This document shows, piece after piece, positions 61,199 to 64,000 of a stretch of DNA of 64,000 nucleotides. Within the stretch, counting starts at the first letter, position 1. Every line of letters starts with the position of its first letter. Below the pieces are notes generated by a model. That model saw nothing but the letters and a program-made list of their open reading frames with translations. It was not told where the DNA came from and made no database searches. The stretch comes from an uncultured Clostridia bacterium (GTDB lineage Bacteria; Bacillota; Clostridia; Saccharofermentanales; Saccharofermentanaceae). The stretch covers positions 62,001-126,000 of the forward strand of contig CAMIYM010000003.1 of NCBI GenBank assembly GCA_946403085.1. Reading direction: 5' to 3'. The position numbers were made by a program, and so were the translations under genes.

Positions 61199-62701
61199 AT
61201 GTCACAGATCAACATCAAAGAACCAAGCGTTGTAATCCGTGAGAAAAGACTTGGAACGATTAATGCTTTCAGCGGATCAGCATCGCAGATCGTCGAAAAA
61301 TCTGCCAAGGGGGAACTTCGCGATTGCAAGAGAAAGTTCTCACAGTGCCTCGGCTGTAATCAGCAGCAGGCATTCTGCCAGCTAGCGATGATCAGGGATG
61401 CAGTAGTAATAAACCATGCACCAATAGGATGCGCAGGCGAATTTGCTGAATTCAATTTCACATACAGAATCGAGCAGTCCAGAAGAGACCTTCCACCGGC
61501 GCTCGGAAGATACTATTCAACAAACATCCTGGAGAAGGATACTGTTTTCGGAGCTGCGAAAAAGCTTGAAGATACGATCAGACTCGTATATGAAAGAGAG
61601 CACCCCAAGGCTATCTTCATTACCACATCATGTGCATCCGGCATCATCGGTGAAGATATTGAATCAGTAGTTGAAGCAGCTACAAAAGAACTCGGGATTC
61701 CGGTCGTAACATGCAACTGTGAAGGCTTCAGATCAAAGATCTGGACGACAGGATTCGATGCTGCATATCATGCTGTGTTAAGAGGTATCGTAAAGCCTGC
61801 AGAGAAGAAGACGAATAAAGTAAATATCATAAACTTCTGGGGAACCCATGTTTTCGATGACATCGTAAGAAGATTCGGGTATGAACCCCAGTATGTAATC
61901 CCGTTCTCAACAGTAGAGGAATTATCTCATGTAAGTGAAGCTGCCGCTTCGATCCATATCTGCCCTTCACTTTCAACGTATATGGGTGCGGGATTAAACC
62001 AGCTTCACGGCGTTCCTGAAGTCCTCGTACCGCCTGCCTATGGTGTTGCCGGTACAGACAGGTGGCTTAGAGCTTTCGGCAAACTCGTGGGCAAAGAGGA
62101 GATCGCAGAAGAGATCATCAAGGAAGGTCACGAGAAGTATGTACCTGAGATCGAGAAACTCAAGGAAAGATTCAAGGGAAAGAGAGCTTATGTAACTGCA
62201 GGCGCAGCACACGGCCAGGCACTCATCACATTGCTTGGTGAGCTCGGTATGGATGTCGTAGGTGCAGCAGTTTTCCATCACGATCCTGTATACGACAGTG
62301 GTGATGACAAGCTCGATATCTTGGGACAGGCAGTCAAGAACTATGGCGATGTTCCCGACTACAGAGTCTGCAATAAGCAGGCGTGTGAGCTTGTTAACGC
62401 ACTTAACAGGATCAAGCCTGACCTGATCCTTGCAAGACACGGAGGAATGACCTTGTGGGGAGCAAAGTTCGGTATCCCTTCACTTCTTATCGGTGATGAG
62501 CAGTTCGGTATCGGATACAAGGGTGCACTTAATTATGCGAGAAGGATCGAAGATGCACTTGATTCGATCGAATTCATAAAGAACTATTCCAAGCACGCTT
62601 CGAATCCTTACACCAAGTGGTGGTTCGATCAGGATCCCGGATATTTCCAGGGTGACGGTTCCGGAAGAGGATGTTCCGGTGCAGGAAATGGAGGATTCTA
62701 A
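61199..62701 (+). CDS. Nitrogenase-like component 1 subunit (NifD/NifE-like)
   Basis: NHAPIGCAGEF, TTSCASGIIGEDIESVV, CEGFR, IHICPSLSTYM, KRIKPD-like NRIKPDLILARHGG. Confidence 0.9.
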   Translation: MSQINIKEPSVVIREKRLGTINAFSGSASQIVEKSAKGELRDCKRKFSQCLGCNQQQAFCQLAMIRDAVVINHAPIGCAGEFAEFNFTYRIEQSRRDLPPALGRYYSTNILEKDTVFGAAKKLEDTIRLVYEREHPKAIFITTSCASGIIGEDIESVVEAATKELGIPVVTCNCEGFRSKIWTTGFDAAYHAVLRGIVKPAEKKTNKVNIINFWGTHVFDDIVRRFGYEPQYVIPFSTVEELSHVSEAAASIHICPSLSTYMGAGLNQLHGVPEVLVPPAYGVAGTDRWLRAFGKLVGKEEIAEEIIKEGHEKYVPEIEKLKERFKGKRAYVTAGAAHGQALITLLGELGMDVVGAAVFHHDPVYDSGDDKLDILGQAVKNYGDVPDYRVCNKQACELVNALNRIKPDLILARHGGMTLWGAKFGIPSLLIGDEQFGIGYKGALNYARRIEDALDSIEFIKNYSKHASNPYTKWWFDQDPGYFQGDGSGRGCSGAGNGGF

Positions 62702-62703
62702 AG

Positions 62704-64000
62704 ATGGCAGGAGCAATAGAACAACCAAGATTTACATGCGCACTCGGCGCTTGCCAGAGTGTTGTCGCTATAAAGAAAGGCGTACCGATCCTTCACTCCG
62801 GCCCCGGATGCGGAGTTCAGATCTCTGAACTGATCGGACAGGGTGAAGGTTATGCAGGCGGATCTACTATGCCTTGTACTAACTCGGAAGAGGCAGATGT
62901 CGTTTTCGGCGGCGAGAAGAAGCTCAGAAACGTTATCGAGAATTCCTTCAAGGTAATCGACGGTGATCTCTATGTTGTTATCACAGGTTGCACAGCGGCA
63001 ATCACCGGAGATGATATCGCATCAGTAGTAGGTGAGTTCCAGCTTGATGATAAGCCGGTCGTTTATGTAGAAGAAGGAGGCTTCAAGTCAAATAACTATG
63101 TAAGCCATTCCAGAGTAGTAAACGCTATCATCGACCAGTATGTCGACAAGTTCTATGAAGACGATGAAGTTATTCCTGGTCTTGTAAATGTATTTGCGAG
63201 CATTCCTTATCAGGATCCTTACTGGAACGGAAACCTGGAGCAGCTTAAAAGGTTACTTACAGGCATAGGCCTTAAGGTCAATATTCTTTTCAGTAACGAA
63301 TCAGAAGGCGTATCAGAGTGGAAGACGATCCCCCAGGCACAGTTCAACATCTTCGTAGGATCATGGGCAGGTCTTGATATCGTAAAGCACCTTAAGCGAA
63401 AGTACGGCACGCCTTATCTGCATTTCCCATATACACCTATCGGTGCGAAAGAGACCTCGGCGTTCTTAAGAAAGGTTGCCGAATTCGGTGAGCTTGACCA
63501 GAAGAAAGTTGAAGCTTACATCGACCGTGAAGAAAAGAAGTTCTACTCACACATCGACAAGATGGCAAGCTTTATGCTCGAGTTCAGATACGGAATCCCG
63601 AGAAGATTCTATTCACTTGCGGATGCTTCTTATTCACTCGGCTTTTCGAAGTTTCTCCTAAATGAGCTTGGCATCATCCCCGGTATACAGTTCATTGTAG
63701 ATGACATCCCGGAGAAGTATCAGGAGAGTGTACTTGACGAGTTCTCAAGGATCTCGGATCTCCAGAGAAGAGATGTAAAGGTGGTTTTCGATCCTGATGC
63801 CGGCCTTGATCAGAAGAAACTTCTTGAGGATGCAAAAGATTATGAAGACAAGAGACTCCTGATCCTTGGAAGTTCATGGGATAAACATATTGCAGACGAA
63901 CTCAATGCCGACCTCCTCATAATCTCAGTTCCGGTTCAGCACAGACTTGTCATGAACTGCGGTTACTTAGGATATGAAGGCGGACTTCGTGCAATAGAAG
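62704..64000 (+). CDS. Nitrogenase-like component 1 subunit (NifK/NifN-like), truncated by window end
   Basis: CALGACQSVVAIKKGVPILHSGPGCGVQI, ITGCTAAITGDDIASVV; open to window end. Confidence 0.88.
   Translation, partial: MAGAIEQPRFTCALGACQSVVAIKKGVPILHSGPGCGVQISELIGQGEGYAGGSTMPCTNSEEADVVFGGEKKLRNVIENSFKVIDGDLYVVITGCTAAITGDDIASVVGEFQLDDKPVVYVEEGGFKSNNYVSHSRVVNAIIDQYVDKFYEDDEVIPGLVNVFASIPYQDPYWNGNLEQLKRLLTGIGLKVNILFSNESEGVSEWKTIPQAQFNIFVGSWAGLDIVKHLKRKYGTPYLHFPYTPIGAKETSAFLRKVAEFGELDQKKVEAYIDREEKKFYSHIDKMASFMLEFRYGIPRRFYSLADASYSLGFSKFLLNELGIIPGIQFIVDDIPEKYQESVLDEFSRISDLQRRDVKVVFDPDAGLDQKKLLEDAKDYEDKRLLILGSSWDKHIADELNADLLIISVPVQHRLVMNCGYLGYEGGLRAIE

What the first reader, a model, noticed from the sequence alone, without database searches (positions are those of the whole stretch)
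61199..64000. Nitrogenase-like reductase pair in a sulfur-metabolism context, not a nitrogen-fixation one
Two adjacent genes encode nitrogenase component-1-like subunits. Each keeps three Cys at positions matching the P-cluster ligands of NifD/NifK: HAPIGC and TTSC in the first, HSGPGC and ITGC in the second, plus an N-terminal Cys in each. No nif genes, Mo transport or nitrogen genes are in the window. Neighbours are cysE, two LysR genes, an SsuABC/NMT1-type importer and metY. The precedent is the marBHDK methylthio-alkane reductase, a nitrogenase-like C-S bond-cleaving enzyme. Inference: a Firmicute nitrogenase-like enzyme reducing an imported organosulfur substrate to sulfide or methanethiol.
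Basis: partly seen in the sequence, partly recalled or inferred. Interest (0 to 1): 0.9.

Follow-up and report, generated by a model that had tools for sequence, protein, structure and literature searches.

The report
Nitrogenase-like organosulfur reductase, sister to MAR
A rumen bacterium carries a compact four-gene relative of nitrogenase that very probably uses nitrogenase-style iron-sulfur clusters to pull sulfur out of an imported organic compound rather than to fix nitrogen; it belongs to a large, biochemically untested family next to the methylthio-alkane reductases.

Summary
Two adjacent genes encode NifD/NifK-like subunits with all six P-cluster cysteines. Just past the window end come their NifH and a NifX-NifB fusion, making one D-K-H-B operon. 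It is the only such set in the 2.7 Mb genome: no NifEN, no NifV.

The nearest solved structure by far is methylthio-alkane reductase, MAR (MarD 429 bits versus 125 for the next nitrogenase; MarK 408 versus 63). All MAR cofactor ligands are kept, including the MAR hallmark Arg428-His429; nitrogenase residues Gln191, His195 and His442 are absent.

It is not MAR itself. D and K trees place it in a sister clade. MAR His194, next to the cofactor, is His in 120/120 MARs and in 0/166 members of this family. Both families coexist in some genomes.

Sulfur genes (metY, MetNIQ or SsuABC importers, CysK, MetB/C) flank it in 64 of 80 related loci; none carries a nifE/N, nifI or nifV gene at the thresholds used. 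No sulfite reductase was found in 59 genomes of the genus, so a thiol or sulfide is the likelier product.

The family includes Heliophilum NflDK1, published as a probable nitrogenase; this evidence argues against that. Substrate and activity are untested.

The parts
61199..62701 (+). D subunit (NifD/MarD-like), 500 aa; P-cluster Cys53, Cys78, Cys145; cofactor ligands Cys255 and His414 (MarD C270, H429)
62704..64000 (+). K subunit (NifK/MarK-like), 443 aa, runs on to window-equivalent 64035; P-cluster Cys12, Cys36, Cys96. Next in the operon, outside the window: nifH-like 64066-64908, NifX-NifB fusion 64919-66193, MORN-like ORF 66202-66792 (window-equivalent coordinates; L008)
61068..61142 (+). 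Candidate LysR operator upstream of D: GTTATAAACCACAGTTATAAC (61068-61088) and two TATTATCACTT repeats (61106-61116, 61132-61142); conserved in the genus, function inferred
60154..61056 (+). LysR-type regulator (LysR2), directly upstream of D in most loci of the genus
58920..59876 (+). cysE-like serine O-acetyltransferase
57842..58765 (+). second LysR-type regulator (LysR1)
57043..57723 (+). LolD-type ABC ATPase, module with FtsX and DUF4418
55791..57050 (+). FtsX/LolC-type permease
55427..55840 (+). DUF4418 membrane protein
54593..55417 (+). SsuB/TauB-type ABC ATPase
53628..54617 (+). SsuC/TauC-type permease
52585..53625 (+). NMT1/SsuA-type substrate-binding lipoprotein; in the genus found only in genomes that carry this D (10/21 versus 0/38)
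50575..51873 (-). metY, O-acetylhomoserine sulfhydrylase of the subfamily that travels with this operon

Best explanation
A two-component, ATP-driven organosulfur reductase of a sister family to methylthio-alkane reductase. Shown by sequence: NifB-type maturase, NifH-type reductase, D and K catalytic subunits, P-cluster cysteines and the MAR-type ligands of the [Fe8S9C] cluster. Inferred: NifB makes the [Fe8S9C] cluster, which is inserted into D without NifEN, Mo or homocitrate; NifH passes electrons through the P-cluster to it; the cluster reductively cleaves a C-S bond of a small organosulfur compound brought in by an SsuABC- or MetNIQ-type importer. The released thiol, probably methanethiol (possibly sulfide), is captured by the partner MetY on O-acetylhomoserine to give methionine or homocysteine; cysE and, in relatives, CysK plus MetB/C feed cysteine. 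LysR regulators probably switch it on when sulfur is short. The substrate probably differs from that of MAR because the cofactor pocket differs (His194 to Ile).
For: MAR is the nearest solved relative in sequence and in predicted fold (9fmg_A TM 0.89/0.95, rmsd 1.9; nitrogenases about 0.62-0.70). C255, H360, R413, H414 and W182 are invariant in 166 family members and 120 MARs. The NifB part keeps the HPC, CxxxCxxC, AGPGD and CxxCRAD motifs (read directly). NifEN and NifV are absent. Sulfur genes in 64/80 related loci (46/59 outside the genus), no nifE/N/I/V gene called. In the seven genomes that hold a metY at least 56% identical (own included), that copy lies within about 10 kb of D. In the genus the importer protein and metY co-occur with D (Fisher 5.6e-6 and 1.6e-5). 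No NIR_SIR in 59 genomes while controls ring, so a sulfite product would be hard to use.
Against: No biochemistry for any member. Thirteen of 59 loci outside the genus show none of the scored sulfur genes. SsuABC relatives suggest a sulfonate, whose reductive cleavage would give sulfite. The MetNIQ-type importer points to another class of substrate, so the substrate is open. The 80 loci are the best hits only, and related genomes are not independent.
Confidence: 0.74

Rival explanations
1. It is a methylthio-alkane reductase in the strict sense, working on (2-methylthio)ethanol, dimethyl sulfide or ethyl methyl sulfide like the R. rubrum enzyme.
For: Same cofactor ligands and hallmark Arg-His pair, same nearest fold, MetY nearby.
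Against: Only 44% identical to MarD, while genuine MARs of Bacillota are 74-81%. Separate clades, 100/99 and 100/100. His194 0/166 versus 120/120 and 34 other fixed differences. Both families occur together in Heliophilum, Heliobacterium mobile and Pelosinus.
Confidence: 0.12
2. It is a NifEN-independent group IV-A nitrogenase, as proposed for Heliophilum NflDK1 and Endomicrobium proavitum NfaDK.
For: PMC9147875 predicts NflDK1 to be the dinitrogenase of H. fasciatum. The Heliophilum member of our family lies beside the only close NifH of the stretches examined (the others are about 38% identical), which matches the paper's description of NflDK1. E. proavitum is reported to fix N2 with only a group IV set (PMC8399215, PMC11257099).
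Against: Gln191, His195 and His442 of NifD are replaced as in MAR, which does not reduce N2 (PMC12552129). No NifV in this genome. Sulfur context, none with nifE/N/I/V. Several members live in genomes that also have canonical NifDK. The E. proavitum sequence could not be obtained here.
Confidence: 0.07
3. It is a sulfonate reductase like IsrHDK, releasing sulfite from isethionate or taurine.
For: SsuABC-type importer next door; Isr works with SsuCAB in R. capsulatus (PMC11423573).
Against: IsrD lacks two of the three P-cluster cysteines and the Cys275 and His442 equivalents (PMC11423573); ours has the three cysteines plus Cys255 and His414. No NIR_SIR sulfite reductase in 59 genomes of the genus. 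IsrB is not NifB-like; ours is a NifB.
Confidence: 0.04

Closest known systems
Methylthio-alkane reductase MarBHDK (Rhodospirillum rubrum; PDB 9FMG, 9D9U)
   Same: B-H-D-K gene set without NifEN; six P-cluster cysteines; Cys270 and His429 ligands; Arg428, Trp195, Phe199, His375, Cys73-Gln74; fold
   Different: 44% identity, sister clade; His194 replaced by an aliphatic residue; N-terminal Cys-rich insert absent; loop around the His ligand RHGGMT instead of RHNGLAP; gene order D-K-H-B; substrate unknown
Group IV-A nitrogenase-like proteins (NfaDK; Heliophilum NflDK1)
   Same: The Heliophilum D/K at L147:3692-6476, identified here as NflDK1 from its nifH and nifB neighbours, lies inside the family
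   Different: Published reading is nitrogen fixation (PMC9147875); residues and context here fit organosulfur reduction. PMC10418091 already noted IV-A MarHDK-like genes near sulfur genes
Isethionate reductase IsrBHDK (Rhodobacter capsulatus)
   Same: Nitrogenase-like enzyme with radical SAM partner and SsuCAB importer in sulfur assimilation (PMC11423573)
   Different: Lacks the P-cluster and cofactor ligands kept here; its radical SAM protein is not NifB-like; product sulfite
Mo-nitrogenase NifHDK with NifEN maturase
   Same: PF00148 fold, P-cluster cysteines, Cys275 equivalent, NifH, NifB
   Different: No Gln191, His195 or His442; no NifEN or NifV; separate clade, 100/100

Membership tests
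Methylthio-alkane reductase (MAR) | P-cluster cysteines, three in D and three in K | tested here: met
   D C53/C78/C145, 166/166; K C12/C36/C96
Methylthio-alkane reductase (MAR) | [Fe8S9C] ligands Cys270 and His429 with hallmark Arg428 | tested here: met
   C255, R413, H414; 166/166
Methylthio-alkane reductase (MAR) | His194 near belt sulfur S2B | tested here: not met
   Ile181 here; 0/166 His versus 120/120 in MAR
Methylthio-alkane reductase (MAR) | Falls within the MAR clade | tested here: not met
   Separate sister clades, 100/99 and 100/100; K agrees
Methylthio-alkane reductase (MAR) | Reduces (2-methylthio)ethanol or dimethyl sulfide to methanethiol | not testable with these tools
   Needs enzyme or growth assays
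Nitrogenase (NifDK, AnfDK, VnfDK) | Gln191, His195 and His442 (A. vinelandii NifD numbering) | tested here: not met
   Trp182 and Phe186 at the first two positions; no His at the His442 column
Nitrogenase (NifDK, AnfDK, VnfDK) | Tree placement with NifD/NifK | tested here: not met
   Split with 100/100 support
Nitrogenase (NifDK, AnfDK, VnfDK) | NifHDKENB gene set and homocitrate synthase | tested here: not met
   One PF00148 pair only; NifV below cut-off; assembly 95% complete
Group IV-A (Nfa) | Clusters with published IV-A members | tested here: inconclusive
   Heliophilum member inside the clade; E. proavitum and P. riograndensis sequences not obtained
Isethionate reductase (Isr) | Only one P-cluster Cys in D; no Cys275 equivalent; IsrB not NifB-like | tested here: not met
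   All three cysteines and C255 present; partner is NifB
NifB maturase (partner gene) | Radical SAM CxxxCxxC plus the further NifB motifs | tested here: met
   TIGR01290 315 bits, below the 343.65 equivalog cut-off, with motifs read in the sequence

The most novel reading that the evidence does not exclude
A large, sharply bounded family of [Fe8S9C]-cluster C-S reductases, separate from MAR, supplies sulfur to rumen, gut and soil anaerobes from a still unknown class of organosulfur compounds. Proteins now annotated as NifE, NifD or protochlorophyllide reductase, and at least some 'group IV-A nitrogenases' (Heliophilum NflDK1), belong to it and do not fix nitrogen.
Probability: 0.55. Interest if true: 0.78.

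Novelty: new variant of a known kind. Interest (0 to 1): 0.62.

Why it matters
MAR is described as the only nitrogenase-like enzyme shown to hold both large nitrogenase clusters (PMC12552129). A second family with the same ligands but another pocket would test what sets substrate choice on the [Fe8S9C] cluster. It could be a hidden sulfur-assimilation route in the rumen, with methanethiol and possibly light hydrocarbons as products. It also bears on whether NifEN-less group IV-A sets fix N2, as claimed for Heliophilum and Endomicrobium, and on nifH-based diazotroph surveys that count such genes.

Tried and rejected
Plasmid DNA search: only a short nifH stretch. Rfam scan for SAM, T-box or other riboswitches near the operon: only a tRNA at 42970-43057. 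Search aimed at Endomicrobium proavitum through termite-gut relatives: no named hit. Early idea that the family is simply the Firmicute branch of MAR: rejected once genuine MARs (74-81% identical) were found in the same Firmicutes. Early note that the Chlorohelix plasmid carries a genuine MAR beside our family: withdrawn, its second D is a divergent type with Glu in place of His429. Molybdate permease: matches below cut-off only, uninformative. The predicted model was used for the fold comparison only; no active-site geometry was measured.

Full report
1. What is there. The window is bases 62001-126000 of contig 3 of a 2.70 Mb, 31-contig Bacillota genome, 95% complete. Its closest named relatives are rumen 'Ruminococcaceae' MAGs (99% identical D in RUG12081). 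D is 61199-62701; K starts at 62704 and ends at window-equivalent 64035; NifH is at 64066-64908; a NifX-NifB fusion is at 64919-66193; a MORN-like ORF is at 66202-66792. Gaps are 2, 30, 10 and 8 nt, so this reads as one operon. D and K are the only PF00148 proteins of the genome. The NifH is the only full-length NifH and the NifB the only NifB. NifV has no match over its cut-off.

2. Nearest relatives. In the PDB by sequence, D scores 429 bits with MarD of R. rubrum and 125 with the next nitrogenase; K scores 408 with MarK and 63 with the next. An AlphaFold2 model of D (pLDDT 82, pTM 0.85) matches 9fmg_A with TM 0.89/0.95 and rmsd 1.9, against about 0.62-0.70 (query-normalised) for nitrogenases and NifEN.

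3. Not MAR itself. A search with MarD shows genuine MARs, at least 74% identical, in Heliobacterium, Heliophilum, Pelosinus, Clostridium and Thermoanaerobacterium. Our D is 44% identical to MarD, while its own family ranges from 55% to 99% in the 80 best loci. Maximum-likelihood trees give this family 100/99, MAR 100/100 and the two as sisters 100/98, all separate from NifD/NifE at 100/100 (the first tree, agrees). K gives the same split of family and MarK, each in its own clade. Both families are present in Heliophilum, Heliobacterium mobile and Pelosinus propionicus.

4. Residues. Using the residues named in PMC12552129, all 166 family members keep the three P-cluster cysteines, C270, H375, R428, H429, W195 and F199 of MarD; C73 is also kept in 166/166 and Q74 in 163. 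His194, which lies close to belt sulfur S2B in MAR, is His in 120/120 MARs and in none of the family (144 Ile, 15 Val, 4 Leu, others). Thirty-four further positions are fixed differently. As a control the same kind of alignment puts NifD Gln191 and His195 at the columns of Trp195 and Phe199, as the paper states. NifD His442 has no counterpart. IsrD, by its paper, lacks most of these ligands (PMC11423573).

5. Context. Among 80 related loci, 64 carry at least one scored sulfur gene (18/21 in the same genus, 46/59 outside it) and no gene was called as nifE, nifN, nifI or nifV at the thresholds used. The commonest partners are a MetNIQ-type importer on the same strand, metY, CysK and a MetB/C-type enzyme; the MetN relative is short and far below the MetN cut-off, so methionine itself as substrate is not implied. 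Kineothrix alysoides carries DUF4418, FtsX, LolD, D, K, NifX, NifB, metY, SBP, SsuC, SsuB and NifH in one run on one strand (L165), which repeats most of the window's gene set. Heliophilum has metY 9 nt before D. In the seven genomes with a metY at least 56% identical to the window's (own included), that copy lies from a few bases to about 10 kb from D, while weaker copies lie elsewhere. Within the genus, the importer's binding protein occurs in 10 of 21 genomes with D and 0 of 38 without, and metY in 12 of 21 versus 2 of 38 (relatedness not corrected).

6. Product. No NIR_SIR domain was found in 59 genomes of the genus, whereas 11 of 14 control genomes ring. A sulfite-releasing reaction would therefore leave a product that is hard to assimilate; methanethiol or sulfide, both substrates of MetY-type enzymes (established knowledge), fit better. 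Choosing methanethiol rests on the MAR precedent and on MetB/C and CysK beside the operon in relatives; it is inference.

7. Nitrogen fixation. PMC9147875 predicts Heliophilum NflDK1, next to the nifH- and nifB-like genes, to be a nitrogenase related to E. proavitum NfaDK. The pair that fits this description lies in our family. Its residues are those of MAR, an enzyme unable to reduce N2, and its neighbours are sulfur genes. PMC10418091 has already remarked on IV-A MarHDK-like genes in sulfur-related clusters, so the sulfur link is not new; the clean separation from MAR, the residue test and the context counts are what this report adds, as far as the held literature shows.

8. Regulation. Between LysR2 and D a GTTATAAAC-type inverted repeat and two TATTATCACTT repeats are conserved, in whole or in part, in most of the genus members aligned; a LysR operator is inferred. 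No Rfam riboswitch was found.

Noticed in passing
L112:1481-3001 (Chlorohelix plasmid) and L054:6575 (Sporomusa silvacetica): A further nitrogenase-like D type in which the MAR ligand His429 is Glu or Asp, His375 is Glu or Asp and Trp195 is Asn or Ile: possibly another cluster ligation.
   Followed up: partly
L107, L108, L109, L110, L111 (genomes of the same genus): Some genomes without our D carry other D-K pairs, about 39% and 34% identical, with their own NifB, NifX and NifH in four of the five stretches; the 34% type lacks the Arg428-His429 pair altogether.
   Followed up: partly
Pelosinus propionicus genome (G061; L157-L164): 27 PF00148 matches in one genome: canonical nif plus many nitrogenase-like pairs, several in one cluster on contig 78.
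   Followed up: partly
window 55427-57723: DUF4418-FtsX-LolD module travels with the operon in distant genomes (Kineothrix L165, L034, L085); function unknown.
   Followed up: partly
window-equivalent 64919-66193 (L008:5919-7193): NifB with the NifX-like domain fused at the N-terminus, the reverse of the order in the NifB model; in many relatives the two are separate genes.
   Followed up: no
window-equivalent 66202-66792 (L008:7202-7792): MORN-repeat-like ORF directly after NifB, kept in most genomes of the genus.
   Followed up: no
public records, e.g. P0049, P0096, P0260: Members are named NifE, nifE3 or light-independent protochlorophyllide reductase subunit N by their sources, which the residue and tree evidence does not support.
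   Followed up: no
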